Source of the DNA: Hysterangium stoloniferum
Lineage: Eukaryota > Basidiomycota > Agaricomycetes > Hysterangiales > Hysterangiaceae
Assembly (NCBI GenBank): GCA_015178975.1
Contig: WHVD01000119.1
Span: 62,001 to 126,000, forward strand
Direction: 5' to 3'
Length of the DNA: 64,000 bases
A model generated the notes under the pieces. It made no database searches. It was not told where the DNA came from and saw nothing but the letters and a program-made list of their open reading frames with translations. Positions within the stretch are counted from its first letter, which is position 1. Every line of letters begins with the position of its first letter. Shown here piece by piece: positions 29,252 through 49,208 of the stretch. The position numbers and the translations under genes are program-made.

Positions 29252-31318
29252 ATGTCGTCTACTCTAAAGCCCATTCATTATCCTGCTGCAAGGAAGCTGG
29301 AAAGCGCTGATTCTACTTCTACCGTGGAGCCACAAGGAGATACATACAATGAACCCGGTTTCGGAATTAAAGAACTTTCACTGGGAACGTCTTCTATAAT
29401 CGAGTAAGTTGTTTGAACTTCAAATATAACACTCTTAACAGGTTATTCCTTTCGAATTTCGCAGTGTTGTCGCCATTCATGGCTTCGATGGCCATCGCGA
29501 AAAATCCTGGACAGGCGATAACGGAAAGCTCTGGCTTCGGGACTTCCTCCCGCAGGCTATACCTACAGCGCGAATTTTGTCCTACGGTTATGATGCGTAT
29601 ACAGAGAGTTCGTCGTCTCAGCAGACTTTGCATGGTCATGCGCAGGATTTTCTTGCACGACTTTCCATGTTTAGAGAGGCGGATGGCACCACGGTTCGCT
29701 GACTGAATATCACCGGTACCCGTCTTGCTTTACTCATCAATTTTTTCGACGTTCTCTAGAAGCGCCCAATAATCTTCATCGCACATAGCCTAGGGGGTAT
29801 TATTCTTAAAAGTGTAGTTCATTTTAAAATAAGAATGGTATCTTTTATTCACGCATGGTAACAGGCCCTGATACAAGCTGCTGCTGCCCATAAGGGACAT
29901 CTCCTGCTACATAAAGGGATTCATTTGTCAACATATGGCATTCTCTTTCTCGGTACACCTCACCGAGGCACAGACATAGTGTTGAAATTCATTTCGTTGT
30001 GCAGCCGGCCTAACAATATCTTGTTGAAACATCTCACATCTCACTCCGAGTTATTACAGCATCAAAACTCTGATTTTAACCTCATTACTGCCGATTTTCA
30101 GATGAAGTTCTTCTACGAAAATTTACCAACTCTGCTCCCTGATGCTATTTCCGAAATTGTGAGTTTTACCATTCTGATATATGATAAATGCATCCCTTTA
30201 TTGTATACCTACAGATTGTTCCCAAAACTTCCGCTATTGTTCCCGGTATTGTGAATGTGGAATCAATAGGCATGCATAAGGCTCACATTGGGATGGCCAA
30301 ATTTCAATCTATTGATGATAATGACTTCAAGTCTATATCATTAATTGTACAAGACATGATCCGGAAAGCTCCATCTGCAGTGCAAACCCGGTGGACCAAA
30401 TTTGATCAACAAAGTGGTCAGTGTCATTATAGATAGAAATACTTTAGCTAATCTTTTTAAGCAGGGGAAACTTCCAAAAGACCTATGTACATTGCCAAGC
30501 TCCGGCCTAGCCCAAGGTTTGTGGGACAGGAGAAATATCTCATGAGACTCCAGAAATTTTTTGCCCCTCAGAGTTCACACTCTGGGTGGAAACATTTCCT
30601 TTTGTATGGTATGGGAGGGGTTGGGAAAACTCAGATTTGTTTGAAATTCATTGAAGAACTTTTAACTAATGACTAGTAAGTTGCCAATCATTTGGTTATT
30701 CCTCCTAGCACTCACTGAAGAATGTTTAGTGGCTTTTTCCAGATTTTCTGGATAGATGCTTCGAATGCAGAGACTCTGGTAAATGACTTCTCAATCATTG
30801 CAGATGATCCTGTTGCAAAATCACAGGGTGTTGAAAATTCTGTTGAGGCTGTGTTGGGATGGCTTGCACTGATTCAAAAGAAATACCTCCTCATCTTTGA
30901 CAATGCTGATGAGATGGATGGAGTGGTCAAAGACTATCTGCCACACATCTGCCAGGTTCATGTGTTAATCACTAGCCGTAACCCTACACTATGCAACCAT
31001 GTGACAGAGTCCCTGCATATTGACCCAATGGGAAGGGACCAAGCAGTTCAACTCTTTAAATATGCAGCTAAATTTGCTAATGAGGCAAATATTGCTCAGG
31101 CAGAATTATCTGAGAAAATTGTTACTAAACTTGGCTTCCTGCCTCTTGCTGTAGATGTTGCAGGAGCTGCCATCTCAAATAGACTCTGTACAGTGACAGA
31201 GTATGTTATCATGTATGAAGAACATCAGGCAGAATTCTTTGATGCAGACAATCCATTTATGAAAGGGGCACCAGGATATAATCAGTCAATTTGTAGCACT
31301 TTACAATTGTCATCAATA
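29252..31318 (+). CDS. NLR-like protein, 5' part: lipase-like hydrolase plus P-loop NTPase (split by Helitron)
   Basis: Fungal NLR/STAND proteins are signalling switches in non-self recognition. Exons 29252-29403, 29465-29693, 29760-29813, 29865-30158, 30215-30413, 30465-30675 and 30730-31318 with introns of 51-66 bp give 576 residues. Residues ~50-300 are an alpha/beta hydrolase of the lipase/DUF676 type: AIHGFDGH, nucleophile elbow FIAHSLGGIIL, and FLGTPHRGTD. A P-loop NTPase follows: Walker A YGMGGVGKT (~357-365), Walker B KYLLIFDNAD (~431-440), VLITSRNP, and GFLPLAVDVAGA. The frame then runs into a Helitron. The gene's 3' part resumes at 41070 in the same codon phase, so the ancestral protein would have been 925 residues. 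The intron before 30730 is my least certain junction. Exons 1-5 are CpG-normal; from ~30500 on CpG nearly vanishes. Without removal of the Helitron this half would end in a short Helitron-derived tail. Confidence 0.88.
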
Positions 31319-31344
31319 TATAGTAAAGTTGCTTGGTGGGTGGT

Positions 31345-31470
31345 GGGCGCTTTTTGGCGCCGAAGGCGCCCTAATCCGTGAGGGCGCGGAGCGCCCGAGC
31401 TTCTTCCCCCATCAGGGTCGAAAAATCCCAATGAGGGCGCGTCAGCGCCCGAAGCTTCTGTGTGGGAGAG
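31345..31470. repeat. GC-rich hairpin cluster at Helitron 5' end
   Basis: Several small perfect stems occur in a row (ggcgc...gcgcc; gggcgcggagcgccc; gggcgcgtcagcgccc). The block is far richer in GC than its neighbours. A similar style of hairpin cluster occurs at the other end (40955-41050). Confidence 0.6.
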
Positions 31471-31529
31471 TCTGACTAATATTGGCGCCGGGACGTTATT
31501 AGTCATCACGGGAGCAAATACAGGCATTC

Positions 31530-31770
31530 GCGGGAGCATTTCTACACTCGCGGGAGTATTTCATAGCGCCGCGGGAGTATTCCTGCACTCGCGGGAGTGT
31601 TTTTCGCGCCGCGGGAGTATTTTGTAACAGGCGCAGAAGTATTATGTGATGCGCGGAAGTATTTTGTCACTCGCGGAAGTATTTTGTCACTCGCGGAGGT
31701 ATTTTGTAATGCCACGGGAGTATTTTGACAGAGGCGGGAGTATTTCTCACATTCGTGGAGCCAGTTCACA
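31530..31770. repeat. Tandem array with gcgggagtattt core
   Basis: About nine copies of a 25-30 bp unit built on cgcgggagtatttt, with loss of exactness toward the right. Subterminal array of the Helitron. Confidence 0.75.
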
Positions 31771-31799
31771 TGCCCTAATGGAGATATTTCCCACGACTC

Positions 31800-31970
31800 T
31801 CTCCCCTGCCGTTCACATAACCATTTCCCGCGCCGTTGACATAACCATTTCCCGCGCTGTTGACGTAACCATTTTCCGCGCCGTTGACGTAACCGTTTCC
31901 CACGCTGCTCACGGGACCATTTCCCGCGCCCTTCATATCAGCATTTCCCGCGAGCCGCGGGAAGCCCGGA
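31800..31970. repeat. Tandem array with catttcccgcgc core
   Basis: About seven units of ~24 bp built on accatttcccgcgccgttgac. It follows the previous array directly. Confidence 0.75.
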
Positions 31971-31989
31971 AGCCCGCTGTAAAGCCTTG

Positions 31990-33046
31990 AGGCTGCCACA
32001 GCTTCTCCTTTCCCCTCTCCCTCCCACAGCTTTTTGCTCCTTAATTTGTGAGGGGTTACTTTTTGGAATATTTCTCAAGGGATTTGGGCTCATACCAAGG
32101 TGTGTTGAGGCCTCTATTTAATTGTATTAAATTTCGCTGTTTTAATAATTAAATATATTATTCTGCAGTTAAAGTCTGGCCATCCACTGGCCCTGGACCC
32201 TCCATATTGAACATTTATCATCTCTGAAGCTTTACTCAACTCCTCAGGCAATATAGAAGCTGTGGTGAGCTCCTATCTATTATTATTTAATTTTCGCTTT
32301 TTTTAATGATTAAATAATCTATTTGCAGTCAAATTACCCTTTCCTGGGTATTATTATCATTGGAATATACAGTCTGAAGGCTCCCCTACAATCTCAGGTA
32401 TGTTTTGGGCTTTATCATGCTGTTTTAATTTATTTATGCATTATTCTTCATGCCTTTGGGCTATTTTAGACTTATTTCTCTGAATTTTGGTTCCCTGAGA
32501 CTTTCCATTACTTCTTTGAGTCCTCTCTGTGAGTATAGGTGGAGTACTGAAGGTGAGTCCTGTCCCTGTAATTAAGTTTGTCTTTTTTTGACTTAAATAT
32601 TATTCATACAGTGAAGTTGACCCTCTATTCTGTGCCTTTTTGTGTTTCCATTCTTATTGGAAGATATAACATACTTCCAGGTTAGTATTAGTACTTTCTC
32701 TCATGCTGTTAAAAAAAATTATTTATGCATTATTTTTCGCGTTTTTGGGCTATTTTAGACCTATTTGTCTGAACTCCCTTTCTCTGGCACTCTCTACTGT
32801 TTTTGTGACTGCTCCTTATAAGTATAAGTGGAGTATTGAAAGTGTGTCCTTTCCCTTTAATTGGTTTCACTATTTTCTACTTAGATATAATTTAACAGTT
32901 AAAATTGACCTTCCATTCTGTGGCTTTTGAAACAGCTCCAGGTTAGTATTAATACCTTCTCTGAGGCTATAAAAGATTATTCATGTTTTTGACCTATGTT
33001 AGCCTAATTCACTCCAAGTCACTCCCCCTGCTCTCTTCCCCCTCTT
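31990..33046 (+). other. Helitron leader upstream of the Rep ORF
   Basis: AT-rich, pyrimidine-tract-rich sequence without coding frames. A block beginning tcatgctgtt (32414 and 32701) is repeated once at a spacing of 287 bp and a partial third copy follows near 32960. Several cag and gtaag-like sites suggest introns or 5' UTR. A plausible acceptor (ttttgcag) lies just before 33054. Confidence 0.5.
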
Positions 33047-33094
33047 TTGCAGGCTTTGTGTCTCTGCTGCTACTGTTGTCATTGCTGTATTATT

Positions 33095-36000
33095 ATGGAT
33101 CGAACACCTGAGCGTGATCGGGAGGAGGAGCGAAGGCAGTGTAGGGCACAATTGCAAATGACATCTCCATCTGATCGTCATCGACGTTTAGCTGTGAATT
33201 CTAATATACCACTCCCTCCTCGACCATTTGGAGATCTCCCTGTTGGTAGAGGTCAACCTGATAATCCATTTTTGGTTGCTCAGCCAGGTGGCTCTGCTGC
33301 AGGTGGCTCTGCTGCAAATGGCTCTGCTGCAAGTGGCTCTGCTGCAAGTGGCTCTGCTGCAAATGGCTCTGCTGCAAGTGGCTCTGCTGCAAGTGGCTCT
33401 GCTGCAAGTGGCTCTGCTGCAAATGGCTCTGCTGCAGGTGGCTCTGCTGCAAGTGGCTCTGCTGCAAATGGCTCTGCTCCAGTTGGCTCTGATGCAATGA
33501 CTGACTTGCTTAATCGGTATAGAGATTTGCCACCATTAATACCTGTTCGGCAGAGACAGAGGCAGAGGCATGGACAGGGAAATGCAGCTACTCAAATGCA
33601 GCAACCAATTTTGCAGGTAGCACCACATATACAGCAGGGTCATCAACCAGCAAATGCACTTATTCAGCCACAGGCACCAGGTCGTATACAAGGCAATGTA
33701 GCTGTAGCTGCTCAGCTGCAGCAACCAATTTTGCAATTAGCACCTGAAGCTGTCCAGCCTGTAGTTGGCTCTGCTGCAGTAGCTTCTCTGTATGCTCAGC
33801 ATAATCCGTTACCACAATTACATCAACCTGCTCAACTGCAGCCACCAGTTTTACAGTCAGCATCACATGCACAGCATGGTCATCAACCAGGAAATGTACC
33901 TGCACCAGTACAGCAAGGTCATCCACAAGTCCAGGCACAGCTACCCATTTTGCAGTTAGCACCACTACAGCATCACCATCTACCTGGAAATCAAGCTGCA
34001 CAACAGCAACAACTACCTATTTTGCAGTGGGCACCACTACAGCATCACCATCTACCTGGAAATCAAGCTGCACAACAGCAACAACTACCTATTTTGCAGT
34101 GGGCACCACCACAGCTTCACCATCCACCTGGAAATCCAGTCCCACAGCTTCAGGCACAGGTACCCATTTTGCAGTGGGTACCACCACAGCTTCACCATCC
34201 ACCTGGAAATCCAGTCCCACAACATCAGGCACAGGCACCCATTTTGCAATTAGCTCCACCACAGCCCCACCATCCACCTGGAAATCCAGTCCCACACCTT
34301 CAGGCACAGGGACCCATTTTGCAGTTAGCCCCACCACAGCCCCACCATCCACCTGGAAATCCAGTTCCACAACAACAACAACCACCTATTGTGCAGTGGG
34401 CACCACCACAGATTCACTATCCACCTGGAAATCCAGTTCCACAACAGCAACAGCTACAGTTAGCCCTACCTCCAGCTATTCCCCTACCCCCAGCTATTTT
34501 ACAGCCTGCAGCTATGCCTCCACCTCCACCTCCACCTCTCATTCCACAATTACCCATTGGACGGCAACCAGTTGTGGAGGAGAGATTCTCAAGACATAAC
34601 TTGGGACGTATGAACATACAGTGTCCAGACTGTGGAGCTTTGCACTGGATGGATGAGCGTGTGGCAAATAGCTCTAAGACACATCCAAAATTTGGCAAGT
34701 GTTGCAAGCAAGGAAAGGTGGCCCTTCCAATACTTGAGCCAGTCCCTCACACTTTAAGGTCTCTTATAGAGGGTAATACAGATAATAGCAGGGAATTTCT
34801 CAAGAATATTCGTGCCTATAATAATGCTTTTGCATTTACATCACTGGGTGTCAATTTGGATGAGTCTGTCTTGCAGGGTGGTGGTGGCCCATATGTCTTC
34901 AAAATCCATGGGGAATTGTATCACCAGCATGGTTCCTTGATTCCTTATGGAGAGGGTGTATCACGTAGTTATGCTCAGCTTTACATCCATGATCCTGCAT
35001 TGGCACAGGAGCATGGACTGATGCAGGCATTGCAGCAGAGGCAGAATCACAGGGCAAATAGAAGCCTAAACAACCAAACCTTTTCTGACTTGCAGGATAT
35101 GATGGAGCAATATAATCCCTTTATACAACTCTATCGCCAGGCACATGAGCGATTGAGAACACAGGCAGAGACTCCAAGGTTGCATGTCAGGCTGAGCTAC
35201 AAGGCTTTTAATGATCCCAGACGGTACAACCTTCCAACTGGTGATGAACTTGCAGTTATTCTTCCTGGAGAGGGTGACACAGGTCGTGGTGATCCAAGGG
35301 ATATTATTGTTCAGAGGAGGGGGGGCCAGTTCCATCATGTCCATGATGCACAGGCCATTTATACACCCCTTCATTATGTCATGCTCTTCCCCAGGGGTGA
35401 GCGAGGTTGGTCATGGGATATTCCCTATGCAAATCAAAATTGGCAGCCCCAGCCTGGACAGCAGGATGAAGGTGAAGATGAAGAAAAAAGTCGGAAAGTG
35501 ACCCAATGTGAATATTATGCCTATCGCCTATTTCCCAGAGCATATGAAGCCATGACCCTTTTTTATGCACAAAAGCTATTCCAGCAGTATATTGTCAATG
35601 CCTGGGCAGTAACAGAGCAGCGCAGATTGAGATTTCTCAGGGATAATCAACCAAGGTTACGTGCAGAACTCTACAACCAGGTGGTCGATGCATTTACAAA
35701 TCAGGATGTCAGTACAGATGCCAATAGTATCGGCCAGAGGGTCATACTCCCTTCCACATTTACTGGCGGTTCAAGGGATATGAGACAAAGTCTACAAAAT
35801 TCATTTGCAATTGCACGCAAGTATGGCAATGCCAGCTGCTTCATCACCATGACAGCCAATCCCAAGTGGAAGGAGGTTACTGATGAATTGCTTCCTGGAC
35901 AGACTGCTGCTGATCGTCCTGATTTGGTCTCCCGTGTCTTTGCTGCCAAGAAGGCTAAGTTGCTCAAGATGATTACAGAGGACCAGATCTTTGGGGGAAC

Positions 36001-37603
36001 AGTAGCCCATATCCATGTCATTGAATTCCAAAAGCGGGGTCTTCCACACATGCACTGCCTTATATGGTTTGATGACCAGAATAAGCCAAGGACACCAGAA
36101 GATGTTGACTCATTTGTTTCTGCCTGTTTTCCAGATCCTGAAACACATCCCAGACTATTTAATTTAGTAGGACAACTCATGACCCATGGTCCCTGTGGAG
36201 CTGAACATCCAAATGCTGCCTGTATGGTTGACAAGAAGTGCAGTAAATACTATCCAAAGGATTGGTGTGAAGCCACCATTGTCAATGAGGAAGGCTATCC
36301 AACATATGCTCGCCCCAACAATGGAAGAGTTTATGAAACTCCCAAGTTTACATATGACAACAGACATGTTGTCCCTTACTCCCCCATTTTGATTCTCACC
36401 TTTGAATGCCACATCAATGTTGAGTTGACCTTTACCAATAGGTCAATGAAGTACATGCATAAATACTGTTACAAAGGGCATGATCGTACAACTATGGAAT
36501 TTGGAAGGACACCAGATGAGATTCAACAGTACCTTGATGCACGTTATGTCAGTGCACATGAGTCTGTCTGGCGGTTAATGCGTAATGAACTCCACACCCA
36601 GGTTCCTGCAGTAATGGCACTTGGTGTCCATCTCCCTGGGGAAAACACTGTACTTTTTGATGGTGATCAAGGTCCTGCTGAGGCTTTACAAAGGGCAGAG
36701 CGTTCAGGGACAACTCTCATGGCCTATTTTGAAGCTAATGCCAAAGGTCTCATTGGTTATAATGGACAGCGTGCCCAGGATACATTTTATATGGATTTTC
36801 CTGAGTATTTCACATTTGTACCCAAGAAGAAATCATGGAAGCCACGTCAAAGTGGCTTTTCAATAGGGCGTATTCATTTTGTCAATATTGCCAGTGGGGA
36901 AAGATTCCACCTACGTACTTTGCTCACTGTTGTCAAAGGTGCCACCTCATTTGAACAGCTCAGGACCTTTCAGGGTGAGACTTATCCTACATTTCAACAA
37001 GCCTGTGTGGCACGTGGTTTGCTTGAAGATGACCGCCAGTGGCATATGTGCCTCAGAGAAGCCAGTGGTATACAATCTGGGTTTCAACTGCGGAGGTTAT
37101 TTGCCATCATTTTGACCATGTCCTCCCCTGCACAACCCCATGAACTCTGGAATGACTTCAAAGTATTTCTTTGTGATGATTTGGAGTTCATACTTAAGCA
37201 AACACAGAATTATTTTATACATGCGCGGCATTTTCAACCGCGTACCCATCCACCCGCTCCCATCCACCGCGCACCCGCTCCACCGCGCACCCGCTCCACC
37301 GCGCACCCGCTCCACCGCGCACCCGCTCCACCGTGCACCCGCTCCACCGCGCACCCGCTCCACCGCGCACCCGCTCCACCGCGCACCCGCTCCACCGCGC
37401 ACCCATCCACGACGCACCCCATCCACCGCGTACCCATCCACGACGCACCCATCCACGACGCACCCACTCCCAACGCACCCACTCCCATCCACGGCGCACT
37501 CACTCCCATCCACGGCGCACTCACTCCCATCCACGGCGCACCCACTCCCATCCACGGCGCACCCACTCCCATTCACGGCGCACCCTCTCTTTCCTCCAGG
37601 TGA
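33095..37603 (+). CDS. Helitron Rep protein (HUH nuclease), helicase domain missing
   Basis: Helitron RepHel proteins nick and transfer single strands through an HUH nuclease and unwind DNA with a Pif1-type helicase. This open frame of 1502 residues from the Met at 33095 (the frame is open from 33047) begins with a charged segment (MDRTPERDREEERR). A GSAAS repeat and P/Q/H-rich repeats follow. A Cys-rich motif (CPDCGALHWMDER ... GKCCKQGK) lies near residue 510. The Helitron-like N domain runs from ~660, the HUH motif GLPHMHCLIWF lies near 982, and the paired Tyr motif YMHKYCYKGHDR near 1119. It reaches the conserved inter-domain segment LWNDFKVFLCDDL, where the helicase should begin. Instead the frame enters a GC-rich tandem repeat encoding HRAPAPPRT-like peptides. 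An intron ending shortly before the Met is possible. Confidence 0.9.
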   Translation: MDRTPERDREEERRQCRAQLQMTSPSDRHRRLAVNSNIPLPPRPFGDLPVGRGQPDNPFLVAQPGGSAAGGSAANGSAASGSAASGSAANGSAASGSAASGSAASGSAANGSAAGGSAASGSAANGSAPVGSDAMTDLLNRYRDLPPLIPVRQRQRQRHGQGNAATQMQQPILQVAPHIQQGHQPANALIQPQAPGRIQGNVAVAAQLQQPILQLAPEAVQPVVGSAAVASLYAQHNPLPQLHQPAQLQPPVLQSASHAQHGHQPGNVPAPVQQGHPQVQAQLPILQLAPLQHHHLPGNQAAQQQQLPILQWAPLQHHHLPGNQAAQQQQLPILQWAPPQLHHPPGNPVPQLQAQVPILQWVPPQLHHPPGNPVPQHQAQAPILQLAPPQPHHPPGNPVPHLQAQGPILQLAPPQPHHPPGNPVPQQQQPPIVQWAPPQIHYPPGNPVPQQQQLQLALPPAIPLPPAILQPAAMPPPPPPPLIPQLPIGRQPVVEERFSRHNLGRMNIQCPDCGALHWMDERVANSSKTHPKFGKCCKQGKVALPILEPVPHTLRSLIEGNTDNSREFLKNIRAYNNAFAFTSLGVNLDESVLQGGGGPYVFKIHGELYHQHGSLIPYGEGVSRSYAQLYIHDPALAQEHGLMQALQQRQNHRANRSLNNQTFSDLQDMMEQYNPFIQLYRQAHERLRTQAETPRLHVRLSYKAFNDPRRYNLPTGDELAVILPGEGDTGRGDPRDIIVQRRGGQFHHVHDAQAIYTPLHYVMLFPRGERGWSWDIPYANQNWQPQPGQQDEGEDEEKSRKVTQCEYYAYRLFPRAYEAMTLFYAQKLFQQYIVNAWAVTEQRRLRFLRDNQPRLRAELYNQVVDAFTNQDVSTDANSIGQRVILPSTFTGGSRDMRQSLQNSFAIARKYGNASCFITMTANPKWKEVTDELLPGQTAADRPDLVSRVFAAKKAKLLKMITEDQIFGGTVAHIHVIEFQKRGLPHMHCLIWFDDQNKPRTPEDVDSFVSACFPDPETHPRLFNLVGQLMTHGPCGAEHPNAACMVDKKCSKYYPKDWCEATIVNEEGYPTYARPNNGRVYETPKFTYDNRHVVPYSPILILTFECHINVELTFTNRSMKYMHKYCYKGHDRTTMEFGRTPDEIQQYLDARYVSAHESVWRLMRNELHTQVPAVMALGVHLPGENTVLFDGDQGPAEALQRAERSGTTLMAYFEANAKGLIGYNGQRAQDTFYMDFPEYFTFVPKKKSWKPRQSGFSIGRIHFVNIASGERFHLRTLLTVVKGATSFEQLRTFQGETYPTFQQACVARGLLEDDRQWHMCLREASGIQSGFQLRRLFAIILTMSSPAQPHELWNDFKVFLCDDLEFILKQTQNYFIHARHFQPRTHPPAPIHRAPAPPRTRSTAHPLHRAPAPPCTRSTAHPLHRAPAPPRTRSTAHPSTTHPIHRVPIHDAPIHDAPTPNAPTPIHGALTPIHGALTPIHGAPTPIHGAPTPIHGAPSLSSR
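33287..33490 (+). repeat. 15-bp coding tandem repeat (GSAAS/GSAAN)
   Basis: About 13 copies of ggctctgctgcaagt or its variants are read in the Rep frame as Gly-Ser-Ala-Ala-Ser/Asn. The frame is kept throughout. Confidence 0.9.
33940..34450 (+). repeat. ~63-78 bp coding tandem repeat, H/P/Q-rich
   Basis: Seven to eight units of the pattern PILQWAPPQ-HHPPGN-PVPQ in the N-terminal half of the Helitron Rep frame. Neighbouring copies are close in DNA sequence, implying recent duplication. Confidence 0.85.
37240..37600 (+). repeat. GC-rich minisatellite replacing the helicase region
   Basis: Units of 15-24 bp such as ccgcgcacccgctcca, later tcccatccacggcgcac, run from just after the Rep domain to the end of the frame. 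The base composition differs strongly from the CpG-poor Rep sequence just before it, so a sharp junction lies near 37225-37240. Confidence 0.85.
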
Positions 37604-39745
37604 TGTGTGTACTCTTTCCTTCTCCCTCCGTCCTGCGCTAATCCGCCTCCTATCTCTTTCCTCCAGCGAGTGTGTGTACTGTTTCCTTCTCTCTTCGTCC
37701 TCCACTGATTGACCTCTTCTCTCTTTTGTCCAGCTGGTGCGTGTACCATTTCCTCTCTCTTTGTCCTCTGATCATCCTCCTCTCTTTCCTCCAGGTGTGT
37801 GTACCATTTCCTTCTCTCTCCATCCTCCTCTCATTGGGACCCTCTCTCTTTCCTCCAGCCGGTGTGTCTACCATTTCCTTCTTCCTCTGTCCTGCGCTGA
37901 TTTGCCTCCTCTCTTTTTCCTCCAGCCGGTGCGCGTTCCATTTCCCTCTCTCTCTGTCCTCTTCTGATTGGCCCCCTCTCTTTCCTCCAGCCGGTGCGCA
38001 TTCCTCCAGCGAGTGTGTGTACCCTGCTCTGATTCGGCCCCTCCAGTTGGTGCGTGTCCCCTTTCCTTCTCTCTTCATCCTCCTCTGATCGTCCTCATCT
38101 TTTTCCTCCAGGATGTGTGTCCCCTTTCCTTCTCTCTTTGTCCGTCTGTCTTTCCTCCAGTTGGTGTGTGTCCCCTTTTCTTCTCTCTTCGTCCTCCTCT
38201 GATTGCCTCCTCTCTCTTTCCTCCAGGACGTGTGTGTACGCTTTCTTTCTCTCTTCGTCCTCCACTCATGGGCCTGCTCTCTTTCCTCCAGGAAGTGCAT
38301 GTACCCTTTCCTTCTCTCTTTGTCCTCTGATGGCCTCCTCTCTTTCCTCCAGCAAGTGCGTGTCCCCTTTCCTCCTCTCTTTGTTCTCCTCTGATCGTCC
38401 TCCTCTCCCTTTCCTCCAGCGAGTGTGTGTACCCTTTCCTTCTCTCTTTGCCCTCCTCTGATCGTCCTCCTCTCTCTTTCCTCCAGGAGTTGCATGTAGC
38501 CTGTCTTTCTCCCTTTGTCCTCCTCTCTTTCCTCCAGGCGGTGGGTGTACAGTTTCCTTCTCTCTTCATCCTCCTCTGATTGGCCTCCTCTCTCTTTCCT
38601 CCAGCCGGTGCGCATTTTCTTTCCTTCTCTTTCTGTCCTCCTCTAATCAGCCTCCTCACTCTTTCCTCCAGGCGGTGCGTGTCCCCTTTCCTTCTCTCTT
38701 TGCCCCCCTCTGTCTTTCCCCCAGATGGTATGTGTCCCCTTTCCTTCTCTCTCCATCCTTCTCTGATTGGCCTCCTCTCTTTCCCCCAGCCGGTGCGCGT
38801 TTCCTTTCCCTCTCTCTCTGTCCTCTTCTGATTAGCCCCCTCTCTTTCCTCAAGCCGGTGTGTGATCCCTTTCCCACTCTATCCTCCTCTGATCGGCCTC
38901 CTCTTTCCTCCAGCCGGTGCGTGTTCCTTTTCCCCCCTCTCTCTGTCCTCCTCTGATTGGCCCCCTCTCTTTCCTCCAGCCGGTGTGCATTCCCTTTCCT
39001 TCTCTCTCTGTCCTCCTCTGACTGGCCTCCTCTCTCTTTCCTCCAGTGTGTGCAGGTACTGTTTCCCTCTTCCTCTCTCCTCTGACTGGCCCTCTCTCTC
39101 TTTCCTCCAGCCAGTGTATGTACAGTTTCCTTCTCTTTCCGTCTTTCTCTGACTGGCCTCCTCTCTCTTTCCTCCAGCTGGTGTGTCTACTATATCCTTC
39201 TTCCTCCGTCCTCCTCTGATCACTGATTGGCCCTCTCTCTCTCTCCCCTTCAGCCAGTCTGTGTTCTGTTTCCTTCTTCCTCCGTCCTCCTCTGATCAGC
39301 CTCCTCTTTCTTTCCTCCAACGAGTGCGTGTATCATTTCCTTCACCTTTGTCCTCCTCTGATCGTCCTCCTCTCTTTCCTCCAGCCAGTGTGTGTACCAT
39401 TTCCTTCACTCTCCGTCCTGCTCTGAATGGGCCCCTCTCTCTTTCCTCCAGATGGTGCGTGTACCATTTCTTTCTCTCTCCATCCTGCTCTGATTGGCCT
39501 CTCTTTCCTCCAGGTGGTGCATGTACCATTTCCTTCTTCCTCCATCCTGCTCTGATCAGCCCCATCTCTCTTTCTTCCAGGGGGTGCCTGTGCTGTTTCC
39601 TTCTCTCTTTGTCCTCTGATTGACATCCTCTCTCTTTCCTCCAACGAGTGTGTGTACTGTTTCCTTCTCTCTTCCTCCCCATCTGATTGGCCTCCTGTCT
39701 GTCCTCCCGGAGGTGCGTGTCCCCTTTCCTTCTCTTTTTGTCCTC
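37589..39745 (+). repeat. Large polypyrimidine tandem array, ~33 units of ~65 bp
   Basis: Each unit contains a ctctctttcctccag tract followed by a g-ggtgcgtgtacc-like stretch, ttccttctctctc and cctcctctgatt. Unit length varies between about 40 and 80 bp. On the plus strand the tract looks like a strong polypyrimidine/AG 3' splice site repeated in every unit. The minus-strand frames in this array (for example 37650-38615) are only translations of the repeat. Confidence 0.9.
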
Positions 39746-39954
39746 TGATCACAGCAATCCTAAAATAAAAATAATATACATTAAATAAAAATACAATGGA
39801 ATAAATTAAAATAAAATGGCAGTAAATTAAAGTGAAATTCAATAAATTAGAATAAAATACAATAAATCAAAATAAAATACATGAATCATGATGAAATAAG
39901 TAAATCAAAATAAATAAATCAGCTACCCACATTAATTAGTTGACTGTCAATTCA

Positions 39955-40240
39955 ACCATTGGAACCATTCTTCCTTTGGTAACCATTGTTCCATTTGTGA
40001 CCATTGTTCCTTTGGTAACCATTTTTCCTTTTGTAATGATTCATCCTTTTATACATTGTTCCCTTTGTAGCTGTTTGTTCTTTTATAAGTGTTGTTTACT
40101 TTGTAACCATTGTTTCCTTTGTAACCATTGTTTCCTTTGTAACCATTGTTTCCTTTGTAACCATTGTTTCCTTTGTAACCATTGATCCATTTGTAACCAT
40201 TGATCCATTTGTAACCATTGTTCCTTTTGTAACTGTTATT
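39955..40240 (+). repeat. 18-bp tandem array, aaccattgtttcctttgt unit
   Basis: Perfect 18-bp copies at about 40097-40190 with degenerate copies on both sides. It follows an AT-rich stretch (39750-39940) of aataaaat-like sequence. Confidence 0.85.
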
Positions 40241-40930
40241 TCTGTTCTTTACACAGTTTCCATTCTTTACAGTTTCCGTTCTTTACACAGTTTCCGTTCT
40301 CTACACAGTTTCCTTTCTTTACAGTTTCCACATTTTTTGTTCTGTAAACACTTTCCATTCTTTACATGGTTTCCACATTTTCTGTCCTCTGAACACTTTC
40401 CGTTCTCTGAACACTTTCCGTTCTCTGAACACTTTCCGTTCTCTGAACACTTTCCGTTCTCTGAACACTTTCCGTTCTCTGAACACTTTCCGTTCTCTGA
40501 ACACTTTCCGTTCTCTGAACACTTTCCGTTCTCTGAACACTTTCCGTTCTCTGAACACTTTCCGTTCTCTGAACACTTTCCGTTCTCTGAACACTTTCCG
40601 TTCTCTGAACACTTTCCGTTCTCTGAACACTTTCCATTCTCTGAACACTTTCCATTCTCTAAACACTTTCCGTTCTCTGAACACTTTCCGTTCTCTAAAC
40701 ACTTTCCATTCTCTGAACACTTTCCATTCTCTAAACACTTTCTCTAAACACTTTCCGCTCTCTGAACACTTTCCATTCTCTAAACACTTTCTGCTCTCTG
40801 AACACTTTCCGTTCTCTAAACACTTTCTGCTCTCTGAACACTTTCCGTTCTCTGAACACTTTCCGCTCTCGGAATACTTTCCATTCTTGGAACACTTTCT
40901 GTTCTCTGAACACTTTCCATTCAAACAATG
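40240..40930 (+). repeat. 18-bp tandem array, acactttccgttctctga unit
   Basis: About 30 near-identical 18-bp units (best between 40385 and 40720), with a looser set of tttccgttctttacacag copies leading in. Frames on both strands are open only because 18 is a multiple of three. Confidence 0.92.
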
Positions 40931-40954
40931 AGTCTCAGAAATACTTAAAAGTTG

Positions 40955-41060
40955 TCGACGCGGGGGGGTTTGGGGGGCGAAGCCCCCCAACAAGCTGGAG
41001 CCCGCAGCGAAGTTGTGGGGCCGGTCGCAAAGCGACCGCCCCGCAGCGTAGCAAGGGTTC
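40955..41060. repeat. GC-rich hairpin cluster at Helitron 3' end
   Basis: Stems include ggggggcgaagcccccc and ggtcgcaaagcgacc. A 3'-terminal hairpin is a family trait of Helitrons and marks the termination site of rolling-circle transfer. The element edge follows within ~15 bases. Confidence 0.65.
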
Positions 41061-41069
41061 CTAAGCTTG

Positions 41070-42119
41070 TATACCCTGATTGAAAAGAGGGCCACAGTGT
41101 CAAGAAGTGCAGAGGATGCATTATTCATTCTGAAAGTTCTAGGGTTCTTCCATCATGAGAACATCCTGGAAGCCATTTTTAAACAAGCAGCAGAATTACT
41201 ACCAGCAAATACATATGATGGGAAATTACCAACTACCACATCAGATCTTCCACATCAACTACTCCAGTGCAATAGTGATGGAGAGTGGCTGAGTCTGCCA
41301 TTCAGACAGGCCATGCAGGTCCTTTGTGATTATTCACTTATATCCAGAGGTCCTGCTACATTCCAGACTTTTTTGTGGACAATACACCCAGTCATTCACA
41401 TGTGGATAAGAGACCATGCACTGGGTATTGACAATATACCTCATTTGTGTGCAGCCAGAGCATTATTAGCAGGGTGTATCAATGTATATGATAATACACA
41501 GAATGGCAGATTGTTTAAGCGAGAACTTTTGCCTCATTTTATAGCAAGTAATGCAGCAGCTAGTGACAAGAAAAAAATGTACTATGATGATCTCTTCATA
41601 AGGACTTCCATGGTATACAAGGAGACTAGCAAATGGTCAGATGCAGAACAACTTGAAAATGAGGTGATAGATGCCAGGGAGAAAATACTAGGGGCTGAAC
41701 ACCCAGTTACTCTGACCTCCAAGGGCAACTTGGCAATGACATACTCCAAGATGGGAAGATGGCTGGATGCACAAAAACTGCAGATCCAGGTGCTTGAGTC
41801 CAGGGAGAAAATTCTAGGGACTGAACACCCAGACACCTTAACCTCCAGAGGTGACTTGGCAATGACATATTCCAATATGGGAAGATGGGGAGATGCAGAA
41901 AAGCTGCAGATTCAGGTGTTGGAGGCTAGTGAGCAAATCCTAGGGACTGAACACCCAAGTACCCTGGTATCCAGACATAACTTGACATTCACATATTTCA
42001 ATATGGGAAGATGGGCAGATGCAGAAAGGCTGCAGGTCCAGGTGTTGGAGGCTAATGAGAGAATTCTAGGGACTGAGCATCCAAACACCCTGGTATGCAG
42101 GAACAACTTGGCAGAATGA
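41070..42119 (+). pseudogene. NLR-like protein, 3' part: helical region and TPR repeats
   Basis: This is the continuation of the NLR gene (29252-31318) beyond the Helitron, in the same codon phase. The first ~170 codons (LIEKRATVSRSAEDALFILKV...) are the helical region that follows the NTPase. Four 42-residue tetratricopeptide repeats then run to the stop: units of the form NLAMTYSKMGRWLDAQKLQIQVLESREKILG-EHPDTLTS. The copies are very alike in DNA, showing recent expansion. The stop at 42117-42119 falls inside what looks like a fifth, decayed repeat (cacctatgcaccctggcatcc), so the gene may have lost its end. This part is almost free of CpG. Cut off from its promoter by the Helitron, it is probably not expressed alone. 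Confidence 0.85.
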
Positions 42120-42769
42120 ACACCTATGCACCCTGGCATCCAAGGCTAAGTTGGTAGCCTCACATTGTCATTTGGGAAAGACAGAAGCAGAAGGTTATAC
42201 ATATGGCTAATTCTACTTTTCCCAGTTTGTTTGTTTCTCTTATTTAAATTCATTGTGCAGTTTGTGTAGATTGTATCCTATATTACTTATAAATATGTAC
42301 AACCTTTCTTGTGGATATCATCTGAATTTAAATGATTCATATTGATTAACTTCAGCATTGGCATCTAATATTCAGAGGGCCACAATGCTTGGTTGAGGAA
42401 GGAAAGAAAGACTCCAGGATAATGATTATGTCCATTTTTGTAATATTAGCAGGTGAAACTTACTGTGTACTATTACACTTCATTTCTGAAGAAAGCCTTG
42501 TCTTTGCTTTGAGGTATTTGGTAGTTTAATGTGAGCTGTATATAAGTAAATATTGCCTCCTTGTAATGTTCATAATAAATTAGGGCATAACATGAGTATG
42601 ATTTACCACAGTGAAGTTCCCTTAGGTGAAGTACATAATGGTCACAAAAATATGAAGAAAGTACTGACAGTTTCATTCATGGGCTCTTTCAGATCCAATA
42701 AATAGCAAAATATTATGACAAGATATGTCAATAAGGGGAGTCATTTTTATATTGTTATTAGTACATACA
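42120..42769. other. 3' flank of NLR gene, AT-rich, no gene seen
   Basis: CpG-free AT-rich sequence. Apart from the decayed TPR copy at its start I recognise nothing. Confidence 0.45.
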
Positions 42770-43270: not shown

Positions 43271-43493
43271 ACTCTGTACTTGGGACTCACAAAAATTTTC
43301 CCTGCCTCCCTATGTCTCTCTTTGCTTTACAAGTTTTGACTTGTCCCTTTTGTTTGCTTAAGTGGATTTCCTGCAGATTTTTCCATTTTTCACATTTTGA
43401 TTGAAGCTTTCTTAGAATATATATATTATCAACTACTCTAAAGTTTCTTCTGCCACATTTTTCTTGCTCTCCTCAACCAGCTCATCTACCTCT

Positions 43494-44344
43494 TGTTAGG
43501 ATACACACACAGGCCGGGTTTCCGGAGAAACCCGTGGGATATCTGGTAGGACTTGGCTTCAGCTTATAGGCTGCGCCCTCGCTAGATCATATTGTCCAAT
43601 TTCAAACAGACGGATGGGGATCCCGGGGAGTCTGGGCGGGGTTCATGGGTCGTAGGTCGTAAGTCGGAGGTTGTGGGTTGTGAGTCGAGATAGTTGAGAG
43701 GGATAGATGTGCCGGAGCCCACAGGCTCCGACTAGTGCGAGCGATGTGAATTAAGTAAGGTTTTAGAGTGGAAAATGTTATTAGATTACTGGGGGGAATC
43801 TAAGCTAATTTTCTGACTGGATTGTATGTACAACATCTGCCAGTTTATATAGACCGTGGAATGCATGACATACCAAATCCAGTAATGACGAAACGAAACT
43901 AACAAAACATGAAACGGGAATAGTAAACACCAAATTGGTGTTAGGAACGGAACAGAACAGAACAGAACAGAACAGAACAGAACAGAACAGAACGGAGCGG
44001 AGTCCAAATCGTGACAAAGCATAACCCATAACAGGAAACAGAGCGGGAGCGGTCCTAAATCGTGACAGGTCATTTGACTAAAACGGGAATGGGGCTCAAT
44101 TAGAGCAGTGATGGGATTCTAAGCGGGGACCGGTGACTGGTGCGTGGGACGAAGACGGACATAGACAGAGACAGAGTCTGGGGAAGTCCAGTGACTGATA
44201 TGTGTCATAATGAGGTCAAATGTAACAAGTCTTGACGTAATGGAGTCCGGGTGGGAAATCCTATAAACAGACGATTGGTGCTTGTAGCGCATGGGGGCGT
44301 ACGGGTTAGTGCCTGGAGTCCGGCAGGATTGTCCAGTTGTAACA
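43494..44344 (-). mobile_element. Solo LTR, family A
   Basis: An 851-bp unit starting tgttagg and ending gtaaca with perfect 5-bp target duplication cctct (43489-43493 and 44345-44349). It keeps most CpG sites and has the ggcttcagcttat block at 43555-43567. A microsatellite of eight aacag units lies inside at 43951-43990. It lies just beyond the recognisable 3' end of the gypsy element but belongs to a different LTR family. Confidence 0.9.
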
Positions 44345-45624
44345 CCTCTTCAGTCCCCACAAACACCCTGAACTCTTCTGTCTCCTCAGACCCCTCAGAT
44401 TCTCCATCCAGGGTCTCCAAGCTCCATGCCTGGTTCTCAAGGAGAACCTGGAACTCCCCACAGAGTCCCGAGGTGAAGTGTAGTTTCATGTCGAGGGCTT
44501 TTCCAAGGGCCTGGAAGAAATGGGAGATGAACTTGGAGCCTCGATCGGAAGTTACGTGAGACGGAACTCCATGTTTGGAAAATACGTGAATAATGAAAAG
44601 TTCCACTAATTGTAAGGACGTGATTGTATCGTGAGTGGGTATGAAAATGCCTTGTTTTGAGAATCGATCCACAACAACTAGAATGGATGTAAAGCCTTCG
44701 GAAGTCAGGAGTTGTTCGATAAAATCCATGGAAATTGAGTTCCAGGGTTTTTCCGGTATCAGAAGTTGCTTGAGAAGGCCGTACGGCTTATGCCTCTGGG
44801 TCTTAGAGTGTAAGCAGGTGGTGCATGACTTACAGAACTGGGTTACAAAATCTCGGAGGTTGGGCCAAGTATATTCTCTATGGATTAAACCAAGAGTATT
44901 GTTAATGCCGTAATGTTCAGAGATTGGATGATCGTGTTTGTACTGAAGTATGCGGAGTCAGAGATTGTTGGAATCTGGAACGTAGATACGTCCATCGAGA
45001 CAGATAAAACCTTGAGAGTCCTGTGACCATTGGGGTTGGTCGGGATTATCAAGAACTTCTAGATGTGGCTTAAGAGCCGGATCGGAAGTGAGTGCGGAAA
45101 GGATATCTTGATGTAATTTTTCAATGTCCATAATCATAACGCTATGCATAATTGGATAGTAGAGGGAAGTCGCTCGAATAGATGTGGAAAGTTGTTGCAT
45201 TGTAAAAACTGGTTTCAAGTTATGTGGATTAACAATGGCATAGTTACTTTCCCCCTCTTTAGGATAGATGTCCCATCATCGAGTCATGGCATCTGGTTTT
45301 CCACCAAGACATCCAGGTCGGAAATGGATAATCATGTTGAAAGCGGAAAGGAATTCGGACCAGTGGGCTTGCTGGTGGGTTAAAAGTTTAGTGGTAGAAA
45401 AATATTCGAGATTTTTGTGATCGGTAACAACATCAACGGGAGTTGTGGAACCTTCGAGATAATGGCGCCAATGTTTGAAAGCTTCAAAAATAGCCAAAAG
45501 TTCCTTATCATGAACGTCGTAGTTGAGTTCGGACACTTTCAGTGTCCGAGAAAGGAATGCGACCGGATGAATTTCACCGTCGGAATCTTGAATGGAAAGA
45601 ATCACAGCAATTGCATAATCAGAA

Positions 45625-47136
45625 TCACAGCAATTGCATAATCAGAATCACAGCAATTGCATAATCAGAAGCATCGGTTTTCACAATAATTGGAACATCA
45701 GGTTTCCAATGGGAAAGAATCGGGGCAGAAGTAAAAGCATTTTTCAAAGTCTGGAAAGCAGAGCAGCATTTGTCGTCAAAGACCCATGGTTGAGTTTTAC
45801 GGGTAAGACAAGTGAGCGGTACTGTAATATCTGAGTAATTCTGAATAAAACGACGGTAAAAGTTGGTGAAACCTAAAAATGACTGAATATCCTTGACTTT
45901 CCGTGGTTCGGGCCAGTCACGGACAACTTGAACCTTGGTTTCATCCATACGGAGACCATCAGGTCCGATAATGAAACCTAAGTATTCAATAGAATCCATG
46001 TCAAAGTAGCATTTTTTACCGTTGGTGAAAAGACCGTTTTTACAGAGTCTTTGGAAAACTTCACGGACTTGTTCGTCGTGAAGAGCGGGATCCTCGGAAA
46101 ATACCAAAATGTCGTCCAAATAGACTATAACACATACATCAAGCATGTCGGAAAATATATCATTAACAAAACGTTGAAAAGTGGAAGGGGCGTTGGTAAG
46201 GCCAAATGGCATAACCAACCATTCAAAGGATCCATAGCGAGTCTGAAAAGCAGTTTTCCATTCATCGTCCTCGACAATTTGAACCAAATGATAAGCATGT
46301 TTGAGGTCTATTTTGGTGTAGATTCGAGCTTTCCGTGGGGTGTCGAGTAAATCGGTAATGAGTGGAAGTGGATACTTATCTTTCCGTGTGATGGAATTTA
46401 ATCCTCTGAAATCGACACAGAGTCGAAGGGAGCCATCCTTCTTTCTGACGAAAAGGACAGGTGCTCTGTACGGAGACTTTGAGGGACGGATAAAACCTAT
46501 CGACAGATGTTCATCCAGGAACTCCCGAATGGACGAAAGTTCCAATTGGGATAATGGGTAAATAGGTCCTAACGGAGGGTTTGAACCAAGCTCAATATCG
46601 ATTTTTAAGTCGTAGGGCCTATGTGGTGCAAGCCTGTCAGCTTTTTGCTTACTGAAAATGTCCGCGAAATCATGATATTTTTCGGGAACTTCTTCCAGGT
46701 TGGCTTTTAGCTCAGATAATTCTGGAGTCACAAAACCTCCAGATGCTTCATCAACTTTTAAGCTGATCGAAAAACACTGCGAACCATCCAGTTTACTCAC
46801 CCTAACAAATGCCGAAGCATTGATGAGAGAGATTTTTGGAGGCATGGAGGTTTCGGTAGAAGCCGGAGATGCTGTTGATGCTGAAAAGGCATTGGCTGGA
46901 AAAGATGCTGCAGGAGGAACCGAAGTGTCAGGAATTCGGAAATTAATACTGCCCAATACCCAGTCAATCAACAGATTATATCGGGTGAGCCAATTGTATC
47001 CAAGAACTACCGAACAGCTAGAGTCCAACTGTGTTACGAAAAAAGTAACCGTCTGGGTTGTTCCACAAGGGAACCAGATAGACATGTCGCAGGCTTGGGT
47101 AATTGCCGTATTGCTAGTGCCGTCAAACAAATGCAA
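45625..47136 (-). CDS. Gypsy pol fossil: protease end, reverse transcriptase, start of RNase H
   Basis: Open stretch of 503 codons from a Ty3/gypsy polyprotein. A TYNLLIDW-type retropepsin tail is followed by the RT domain: [46 protein letters not shown] and the catalytic [20 protein letters not shown] and [15 protein letters not shown] lead into RNase H. Further RNase H (45276-45605) and integrase sequence (44475-45220) lies downstream on the same strand. This is part of a broken element; the neighbouring parts are not in one continuous frame. Confidence 0.9.
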
Positions 47137-47378
47137 GGAAATTGCAGGAACAGAATGGAGTTTCAGATTATGTTTTGTGGCAAAGGTGGTATCTACAAAA
47201 CAGTGTGTGGAGCCGGAATCTATCAGAGCTCAGAACACTAAATTTCCAAGAAAGTCAGAGATGAGTTTTACAAATAATGAATCGGGATTAGAGAGAGCGG
47301 ACGCATTGAGACGGATAACCTCGGAAACACGGAGAGAGTCAACGCAACCCTCTGTCCATGCAGATTCCGGAGGGTTGC

Positions 47379-48608
47379 TTACTCTTTTTTTGACTCCGTG
47401 GCGGGTTTTTCCTTAGATGTTGTAGTCATAGTGGAAGTTGCTGCACAGGCCTTGGAAAAGTTAGATTTAACAGTACAGTCAGAAACCTTGTGTCTGCCTT
47501 TCCCACAGAAAAGGCAGAGGTCGTTGTCCATACATTGTTGTTTCTCCTTCGGGGTGAGTTTACCGTCAGTACCCAACAAATGGGAAATGTCGGGTTTGTC
47601 GGAAGTTGACTGTTTTTCCTTGTTGGATTTCTTGTCTTTCTTCCAGTTGGAGTTTGATTTGCCAGTATTAGTGCCAGAGTTGCCGGTGTTATTGCCTGAG
47701 TTGTTGCCGGAAGACTTGCTAGTCAACACCTTGTTATTCTGAGAACGTTCCATCGGGTTCTCTCGAGAGACCTCGGCTTTTCGTTCCCAATAACGGGCAT
47801 CAGATGTTTGAGCTTTAATCCACATGAGTTGGAGAGTTTTTGGCTTCCCATCTTTGCAGATCTCATCTTTAAGGTGTGACGGAAGTCCCATATAGAAATG
47901 ATGCCTGAGGGTGGAATCGTCCCATCCACATCGTGTGGCGAGGGTATTGAACTTGACGAGATAATCGGAAACTTGTTGATTGTCCTTCATATTAAGCATC
48001 ATTAATTCATTTTCCACTTCACCGGATTGATCGTAAGGTCCAAAATTAGTTTCTAGTTCTTCCACAAAAGCATCCCAGTCATCGAGCCATACAGGTGTCT
48101 TGTCAGATATTCCAGATAGTCCGGGTTTGAACCAATCTTGAGTGGTATCCTTGAGATAAGAGAGCGCGAAATTGACTTTTCGACTGTCGGATTTAAATGC
48201 AGCGGGTCGATCATGGAAACTGAAACGGCATTGGAGAAGGAAATTTTTCAATTTTTTTGGATGCTTGCTGGTAAATGGTTTGGGTTCTTTGACTCCGGTG
48301 TGGGATGATTCTTTACTATCCTCAGCGGATTTCAAGTAGTCAGTGAATTTCACAATGGAGTTGATAAACAACATTTCAGTCAGTTCATCGGAAGATTTCT
48401 TTTTCAATGATTCCAGCTGATCTTCTGCTTCGTTGTCAGAAGTGTGGGGAATATTGGGGTCCTTCGTTACCTCCGTAACCTCCTCGGTAACTTCTTCGAC
48501 TGAAGCTGATGTTGTCAGCTGAATTGGGGTTTCGGGTTGAGTGGTGTAAAGTTGCAACGGGGATTGAAGTTGGGATGGTCCTTCGGCAGCTTTGCATTTG
48601 GGACCCAT
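47379..48608 (-). CDS. Gypsy gag-like protein with zinc knuckle
   Basis: A 409-residue frame starting 35 bp inside the 5' LTR. After an acidic N-terminus (residues 1-110) comes the retrotransposon gag domain (FLLQCRFSFHDRPAAF ... DWDAFVEELETNFG ... YLVKFNTLATRCGW ... FYMGLP). Near the C-terminus is a CCHC knuckle, CLFCGKGRHKVSDC. Length and domain order are normal for gypsy gag in basidiomycetes. Confidence 0.9.
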   Translation of the reverse strand: MGPKCKAAEGPSQLQSPLQLYTTQPETPIQLTTSASVEEVTEEVTEVTKDPNIPHTSDNEAEDQLESLKKKSSDELTEMLFINSIVKFTDYLKSAEDSKESSHTGVKEPKPFTSKHPKKLKNFLLQCRFSFHDRPAAFKSDSRKVNFALSYLKDTTQDWFKPGLSGISDKTPVWLDDWDAFVEELETNFGPYDQSGEVENELMMLNMKDNQQVSDYLVKFNTLATRCGWDDSTLRHHFYMGLPSHLKDEICKDGKPKTLQLMWIKAQTSDARYWERKAEVSRENPMERSQNNKVLTSKSSGNNSGNNTGNSGTNTGKSNSNWKKDKKSNKEKQSTSDKPDISHLLGTDGKLTPKEKQQCMDNDLCLFCGKGRHKVSDCTVKSNFSKACAATSTMTTTSKEKPATESKKE

Positions 48609-48642
48609 GATGAGCGAGTCGCAGAGTTGAGATCTGATATAC

Positions 48643-49186
48643 TGTTAAGTGCCGTGTCGGGAACTTATTCCAGAACTATCGGAAAGTCACCGGGAAGTCG
48701 GGAACTATTGGATAGGGTCAGGACGTCGGCTTCAGCTTATGTGCTGCACCTCTATGCAAACGCTCAAAGTCCTTAATTTCAGAAGTGAGACTTATGATGG
48801 AAGATACGGATATTCAGAGTTCCAAAGAGTTCCGAATATCGAGCATACAGAAAGATGGAAGAAGGAATAAGAAACTAAGTCGATATCAGATCTAAGGTAA
48901 AGTACAAATTCACGGAAACTAATATAAGTCTTCTCGTTATTGTACTACAAACTGAGACCATAATAAGATGGAAACAGAAGTATTCTTAAAATGGAAATAC
49001 AATAAGACATATTGGGGAGACAATATTCCAAAACGGGAATATAATAGACAAACGAGTGAATACTTGTCAGCGGACAAATTACCAAATGCGGAACAAGGGA
49101 AGAATGCGGAAGATACGGTAACTATGATGTTCCATAGTCGGGGATCAGGAGTCGGATATTAAAGAATCCAGGAATGGGTCGTAACA
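48643..49186 (-). mobile_element. LTR of the gypsy element (family C), 544 bp
   Basis: On the minus strand it begins tgttacgacc and ends cttaaca. Just beyond its end, 48629-48642 reads (minus) gtatatcagatctc, close to the tRNA-Met-type primer site tggtatcagagc of many gypsy elements. This fixes the sense orientation of the LTR families in this window. The shared block ggcttcagcttat lies at 48729-48741. Confidence 0.85.
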
Positions 49187-49208
49187 GGTCTTTACATTAT
49201 TATTGTTA

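What the first reader, a model, noticed from the sequence alone, without database searches (positions are those of the whole stretch)
29252..42119. Helitron inserted seamlessly into an NLR-type immune-receptor-like gene
The coding phase on the two sides of the 9.75-kb Helitron agrees exactly (TCA ATA | TAT ACC). Both halves are otherwise open: 576 codons before and 349 after. The host gene was therefore functional until, or shortly before, the insertion. A Helitron beside a rapidly evolving receptor with recent TPR duplications is a candidate source of gene-fragment capture or allelic variation in self/non-self recognition.
Basis: partly seen in the sequence, partly recalled or inferred. Interest (0 to 1): 0.75.

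Follow-up and report, generated by a model that had tools for sequence, protein, structure and literature searches.

The report
Rep-only Helitron splitting fungal receptor gene
A mobile DNA element of the Helitron kind, missing its usual helicase, has landed inside a fungal immune-receptor-like gene and cut it in two; this looks like ordinary gene disruption, useful mainly as a clean marker for comparing strains.

Summary
The core observation holds: an NLR-type gene is interrupted by one ~9.76-kb Helitron-class element, and the reading phase agrees across it. Upstream, hydrolase (DUF676) and NB-ARC coding is open over seven inferred exons; downstream, 349 open codons carry kinesin-light-chain-like TPRs.

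Four corrections. (1) The element most likely spans 31313-41069, not 31319-41069. (2) The Rep nuclease part is complete: 39% identity to bat Helraiser with all four catalytic His/Tyr residues. The similarity stops before the SF1 helicase, and tandem repeats follow. (3) The TPR duplications are not recent: third-codon-position identity is 0.60-0.80. (4) The host ORF ends inside a TPR with an apparent out-of-frame repeat remnant, so 'functional until insertion' is unproven.

Phase agreement alone is weak evidence (1 in 3 by chance). No gene capture was seen. A CTTG-ending, AT-inserting fungal Helitron family (HELPO2) is already published. Verdict: insertional disruption, a new member of a known kind.

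The parts
29252..31312 (+). 5' part of the split NLR-like gene: seven inferred exons (29252-29403, 29465-29693, 29760-29813, 29865-30158, 30215-30416, 30465-30675, 30730-31312), 575 codons; alpha/beta-hydrolase-like N-terminus and NB-ARC with P-loop GMGGVGKT
   Evidence: exons set by hand, no stop; coordinates there run to 31318; DUF676 20.8 bits vs cut-off 20.3; NB-ARC E 1.9e-14, residues 354-548
31313..41069 (+). Helitron-class element, 9757 bp, A|TC...CTTG|T, no target-site duplication under these edges
   Evidence: only A|TC among edges 31285-31344; in phase with CTTG|T; profile of relatives: 32.6 bits for left edge 31312 vs 27.2 for 31318 with 17 relatives; 32.4 vs 28.5 with 9, where 31300 scored 33.3
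33008..37207 (+). Rep coding stretch of the element: zinc-finger-like N-terminus, HUH nuclease, two catalytic Tyr; Helraiser-like up to the codon at 37181
   Evidence: H593/H595/Y727/Y731 of Helraiser = H at 36047 and 36053, Y at 36452 and 36464
37237..40922 (.). tandem-repeat arrays (16-, 21-, about 67-, 20-, 18-bp units) lying where the SF1 helicase would be encoded and on towards the 3' end
   Evidence: arrays; no Walker A motif in six frames, no Pfam helicase in the stretches scanned
31528..31952 (.). tandem repeats near the element's 5' end (about 20-bp and 24-bp units)
41017..41042 (+). subterminal hairpin (GGGGCCGGTCGCAAAGCGACCGCCCC), ending 27 nt before the element's 3' end
   Evidence: position; last 130 nt folded as DNA: z -5.03, 0 of 200 shuffles as stable
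31379..31381 (+). first in-frame stop met by the receptor frame inside the element, after 22 element codons
41070..42119 (+). 3' part of the split NLR-like gene: 349 codons and a stop; weak DUF7779 match and TPR units of 126 bp; first Met at 41313
42110..42210 (+). apparent out-of-frame TPR remnant (EHLCTLASKAKL...) just past the stop, suggesting a deletion with frameshift in the last repeat
   Evidence: translation in the next frame; local alignment to a TPR unit; weak

Best explanation
A fungal NLR-like gene (alpha/beta hydrolase, NB-ARC, TPR) has been disrupted by insertion of a Helitron-class, HELPO2-like element between an A and a T, in the linker that joins the NB-ARC domain to the following winged-helix/TPR part. 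The element keeps a complete HUH/Y2 Rep nuclease but has no detectable SF1 (PIF1-like) helicase; tandem repeats follow the Rep instead. It is therefore expected to be unable to move by itself: it would have needed a helicase supplied in trans, or lost its own after landing. Shown here: domains, open frames, terminal motifs, no helicase found. Inferred: the exact edges, rolling-circle insertion without target duplication, relative recency, loss of receptor function. A transcript of the 5' half would give a receptor lacking its TPR sensor, with 22 element-coded residues added before a stop.
For: NLR domains on both sides in the usual order. 575-577 open codons upstream and 349 downstream in matching phase. 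A single A|TC edge that pairs in phase with a CTTG|T edge. Rep matches Helraiser residues 119-967 with 39% identity and all four catalytic residues. No Walker A pattern in six frames of 31319-41069 and no helicase in the stretches given to Pfam. Strong fold at the 3' end. HELPO2 of Pleurotus ostreatus has AT insertion and a CTTG 3' end (PMC4289320, passages and section 5 seen).
Against: Only one copy of the element was available: nothing else in the window matches it, and scans for the Rep in viral contigs, genome contigs and phages found no relative. The ends are therefore inferred, not proved by an alignment of copies or an empty site. With nine of the 17 relatives the profile ranked left edge 31300 (33.3 bits) above 31312 (32.4). 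The relatives are bacterial and distant (22-45% identity in the rows listed). The hairpin lies 27 nt from the end, not the 10-12 nt of canonical Helitrons. The 3' end of the receptor ORF may have been damaged independently.
Confidence: 0.85

Rival explanations
1. The receptor gene was already a pseudogene, with a frameshifting deletion in its last TPR, when the element landed; the insertion had no further consequence. (Compatible with the best explanation of the element itself; it differs on the state of the gene.)
For: The ORF stops inside a TPR, and a TPR-like remnant continues in another frame.
Against: The rest of the host coding sequence is open, 575-577 plus 349 codons. Repeat arrays may end at many points, and the remnant alignment is weak.
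Confidence: 0.25
2. The truncated 5' half (hydrolase plus NB-ARC, 22 element codons, stop) is kept as a functional short receptor or regulator.
For: The NB-ARC P-loop and hydrolase-like motifs are intact, and the frame meets a stop only 22 codons into the element.
Against: No expression data; loss of the sensor part usually gives an inactive or misregulated receptor (general knowledge). No short fungal form could be sought because no fungal collection was available.
Confidence: 0.1
3. Assembly error joining a receptor fragment, an element and another receptor fragment.
For: Tandem arrays from 37237 to 40922 are places where assemblies can break; no reads or second genome could be checked.
Against: The halves fit in domain order and phase, and the junctions carry Helitron terminal motifs.
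Confidence: 0.05
4. The insertion is processed as an intron, so the receptor still works.
For: A GT lies near the left end (31323) and an AG near the right end (one search prints both junctions).
Against: The six inferred introns of this gene are 48-66 nt; a 9.7-kb intron would be far outside that range.
Confidence: 0.03

Closest known systems
HELPO2 Helitron family of Pleurotus ostreatus (PMC4289320; passages and section 5 seen)
   Same: Fungal; AT insertion; T[C/G] 5' end; CTTG 3' end; subterminal hairpin; Helitron_like_N Rep; elements of 3.9-10 kb
   Different: HELPO2 putative autonomous copies encode Rep plus PIF1-type helicase in about 1400 aa; here no helicase was found and long tandem arrays are present. 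No HELPO2 sequence was available for alignment.
Helraiser, reconstructed bat Helitron (PDB 7lcc; PMC4778049 passages seen)
   Same: 39% identity over the region matching Helraiser 119-967; HUH and both Tyr residues conserved
   Different: Helraiser (chain of 1496 residues) has an SF1 helicase with Walker A K1068, reported as required for transposition; the window ORF lacks it
Fungal NLRs with alpha/beta-hydrolase N-terminus and with TPRs (PMC9815663; passages seen)
   Same: Hydrolase-like N-terminus, NB-ARC and TPR in that order
   Different: Here split by the element
FoHeli elements of Fusarium oxysporum (PMC5148889; passages and section 13 seen)
   Same: Fungal Helitrons of about 5-11 kb with Rep
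   Different: FoHelis are Helitron2-like with asymmetric terminal inverted repeats and other end sequences; no inverted match of 9 nt or more between the ends was found here

Membership tests
Helitron (Helitron1, HELPO2-like) | HUH/Y2 Rep nuclease | tested here: met
Helitron (Helitron1, HELPO2-like) | SF1/PIF1-type helicase in the same ORF (autonomous elements) | tested here: not met
   hence filed as a helicase-less, presumably non-autonomous Helitron-class element, not as an autonomous Helitron
Helitron (Helitron1, HELPO2-like) | 5' end TC | tested here: met
   TC at 31313 if the edge is 31312|31313; edge inferred
Helitron (Helitron1, HELPO2-like) | 3' end CTRR, or CTTG as in HELPO2 | tested here: met
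   CTTG at 41066-41069; strict CTRR is not met
Helitron (Helitron1, HELPO2-like) | Hairpin 10-12 nt before the 3' end | tested here: inconclusive
   strong hairpin present, but 27 nt from the end
Helitron (Helitron1, HELPO2-like) | Insertion between A and T without target duplication | tested here: met
   under the inferred edges; no empty site seen
Helitron (Helitron1, HELPO2-like) | Several copies with the same ends | not testable with these tools
   no whole genome held
Helitron2 / Helentron | Asymmetric terminal inverted repeats | tested here: not met
   no inverted match of 9 nt or more between the first 170 and last 130 nt
Fungal NLR | Central NB-ARC or NACHT with P-loop | tested here: met
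   P-loop at 30608
Fungal NLR | N-terminal effector domain | tested here: met
   DUF676 20.8 bits vs cut-off 20.3; marginal
Fungal NLR | C-terminal repeat sensor | tested here: met
   TPR_10 E 4.8e-46, TPR_12 E 2.3e-38; separated from NB-ARC by the insertion
Fungal NLR | Role in immunity or self/non-self recognition | not testable with these tools
   no functional or population data

The most novel reading that the evidence does not exclude
A helicase-less, Rep-only Helitron lineage with minisatellite arrays in place of the helicase is mobile in trans in this fungus, and its insertion between the NB-ARC and the sensor part creates a heritable switch: a short hydrolase/NB-ARC allele segregating with an intact receptor allele.
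Probability: 0.06. Interest if true: 0.6.

Novelty: new member of a known kind. Interest (0 to 1): 0.27.

Why it matters
[quoted passage not shown] If an empty-site allele exists, this locus would give exact termini for a CTTG-type fungal Helitron and a natural loss-of-function allele of an NLR. The missing helicase matters because helicase mutants of Helraiser, a reconstructed bat Helitron, did not transpose (PMC4778049, passages), so copies like this one would show whether Rep alone can be mobilised in trans.

Tried and rejected
Tried without result. (1) Own-genome search: no genome held. (3) Relatives of the Rep in viral contigs, genome contigs and phages: none. (4) Relatives of the receptor's 3' half in viral contigs and of its NB-ARC exon in genome contigs: none. 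(5) Rfam at gathering threshold and a tRNA scan of the window: nothing.

Considered and rejected. The 9.7-kb insertion as an intron: the gene's inferred introns are 48-66 nt. Helitron2/Helentron membership: no terminal inverted repeat. Recent TPR amplification: third-position identity 0.60-0.80. RIP as an age marker: the element and both receptor halves show no RIP-like dinucleotide bias, but two dispersed repeats come near or past the usual cut-offs, which I recall as TpA/ApT above 0.89 and the second index below 1.03 (19376-20041: 0.90 and 0.88; 62878-63548: 0.93 and 1.04). With one copy of the element this dates nothing.

Weak points. Exon borders were set by eye; intron 2 has an unusual donor (GTTCGC). 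The relatives for the edge test were those BLAST listed: 14 of the 27 records and 6 of the 10 rows listed (179 records matched) were fetched as 20 loci. 17 of the 20 gave a usable segment by a GxLPLA-type pattern (L005, L006 and L021 dropped out), and a subset of 9 of the 17, chosen by me for having a W-motif-like region, ranked another edge first by 0.9 bit. Helicase search: of 36 open stretches of 100 codons or more in 31200-41200, Pfam saw the Rep ORF and ten others; the other 25 were not given to Pfam, but the Walker A pattern search covered all six frames.
Full report
What is there. On the + strand, 29252-31318 can be read as seven exons separated by six short GT-AG introns (48-66 nt), giving 577 codons without a stop; 41070-42119 gives 349 codons and a stop in matching phase. 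Exon borders were set by eye. The upstream product matches DUF676 marginally (20.8 bits against a cut-off of 20.3) and NB-ARC clearly (E 1.9e-14, residues 354-548); the downstream product matches TPR_10 (E 4.8e-46), TPR_12 (E 2.3e-38) and, weakly, DUF7779 (E 0.011, below cut-off). Among solved structures its TPRs are most like kinesin light chains, with a protein named 'Anserina putative kinesin light chain' (4y6c) also in the list. Fungal NLRs with an alpha/beta-hydrolase N-terminus, a central NB-ARC and C-terminal TPRs are published kinds (PMC9815663, passages seen). So the two halves most likely belong to one NLR-like gene.

The element. Between them lies a Helitron-class element. Its ORF, open from 33008 to 37600, contains Helitron_like_N (E 5.7e-57) and matches Helraiser, PDB 7lcc, over Helraiser residues 119-967 (E 3.8e-176), with 39% identity in the alignment. 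The residues whose mutation abolished Helraiser transposition in the nuclease part, H593, H595, Y727 and Y731 (PMC4778049, passages seen), are all conserved.

No helicase found. The similarity ends at Helraiser residue 967 (window 37181), about 100 residues before the Walker A lysine K1068. Tandem arrays start at 37237. A Walker A pattern (G..G.GK[ST]) occurs in none of the six frames of 31319-41069; its only occurrence in the window is the receptor's own P-loop at 30608. Ten of the other 35 open stretches of 100 codons or more listed were given to Pfam and showed no helicase; the single row was DUF6097 at E 0.09. In Helraiser, mutation of K1068 led to loss of transposition (PMC4778049). The copy is thus expected to be non-autonomous. 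In a published data set of fungal gene models and Repbase proteins, 416 sequences carried the Rep domain, 672 the PIF1-like helicase and 125 both (PMC4289320, passage), so Rep-only models are not rare on paper; many may be fragments (inference).

Where it starts and ends. I listed all edges in 31285-31344 and 41040-41084. There is one A|TC edge, 31312|31313. There are three CTRR or CTTG matches on the right: CTAA|G, CTTG|T (41069|41070) and CTGA|T. The pair A|TC...CTTG|T keeps the coding phase; A|TC...CTGA|T does not. A profile of the segment after GxLPLA from 17 bacterial NB-ARC/TPR relatives scored 12 candidate junctions: 31312 came first with 32.6 bits, 31318 had 27.2. With nine of the 17, 31300 came first (33.3), 31312 second (32.4), and 31318 had 28.5. 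The evidence favours 31313-41069 (9757 bp) but is not proof. In both versions the phase is kept, because they differ by two codons. Phase agreement therefore cannot fix the edge, and by itself it has a one-in-three chance of arising at any junction.

Comparison with known Helitrons. HELPO2 of Pleurotus ostreatus has AT insertion, a T[C/G] start, a CTTG end and a subterminal hairpin (PMC4289320). The window element shows the same set under the edges above; its hairpin (41017-41042) ends 27 nt from the 3' end, and the last 130 nt fold far better than shuffles (z -5.03, 0 of 200). FoHeli-type (Helitron2-like) inverted repeats were not found: no inverted match of 9 nt or more between the ends. No second copy was found in the window, and no relative of the Rep in the collections searched, none of which is meant to hold fungi.

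Consequences for the gene. The receptor frame runs 22 codons into the element and stops at 31379. The 3' half has no methionine until 41313. So the predicted 5' product is a hydrolase/NB-ARC protein without its sensor. The four TPR units have pairwise nucleotide identities of 0.65-0.80 and third-position identities of 0.60-0.80, with first and second positions more conserved in all six pairs; these repeats look old and constrained, not recent. Just beyond the stop at 42119 another frame reads EHLCTLASKAKL..., resembling a TPR. This suggests a frameshifting deletion in the last repeat, which may precede the insertion; the alignment is weak.

What is not known. The species, copy number, age, expression and empty site could not be examined: no genome is held. 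That the host is a fungus rests on the Velvet gene, the short introns and the NLR architecture. Literature: searches combining Helitron with NLR/NB-ARC (20 of 34 papers listed), NOD-like receptor (15 of 93), heterokaryon incompatibility/NACHT (12 of 114) and gene disruption (10 of 648), and transposon insertion with NLR (12 of 12), showed no listed paper whose title or abstract start describes a Helitron inside a fungal NLR. I opened only passages of two NLR papers from these listings, besides passages and single sections of the two fungal Helitron papers and passages of the Helraiser paper, so a report in an unopened or unlisted paper is possible. [quoted passage not shown]

Verdict. A real and well-formed insertion of a helicase-less Helitron-class element into an NLR-like gene; ordinary disruption is the best reading, and the gene-capture or variation idea has no support here.

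Noticed in passing
44205-52593: Gypsy-like retrotransposon pieces on the minus strand downstream of the receptor: integrase core (44205-44729), RT and RNase H (45625-47136), gag (47379-48608), a further integrase zinc-binding piece (52135-52593).
   Followed up: partly
49207-50769: Large palindrome: two arms of about 700 nt, 95% alike, around a 160-nt spacer.
   Followed up: no
54429-59291: Direct repeats of 178 bp (94% identical) flank + strand ORFs without meaningful Pfam matches (one row, DUF2631 at E 0.23). Two of them read like a reverse transcriptase and a tyrosine recombinase of DIRS/Ngaro type; that label is recalled, not from a tool.
   Followed up: partly
3558-7232: Velvet-factor gene region (Pfam Velvet, E 2.5e-23, for 3558-4220) in a stretch of GC 0.60 against 0.46 for the window.
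   Followed up: no
22129-22665: Amidohydrolase piece on the minus strand (Pfam Amidohydro_1, E 9.2e-15).
   Followed up: no
12777-20041, 43493-44345, 52610-53183, 60402-63549: Dispersed repeat families, about 73-89% alike, in both orientations, around the receptor locus.
   Followed up: no
19376-20041 and 62878-63548: Two copies of one repeat with RIP-like dinucleotide indices (0.90 and 0.88; 0.93 and 1.04), unlike the Helitron and the receptor; cut-offs recalled.
   Followed up: no
33240-33539 and 33932-34457: 15-bp and about 75-bp tandem repeats within the N-terminal part of the Rep ORF, coding low-complexity sequence before the conserved zinc-finger-like region.
   Followed up: no
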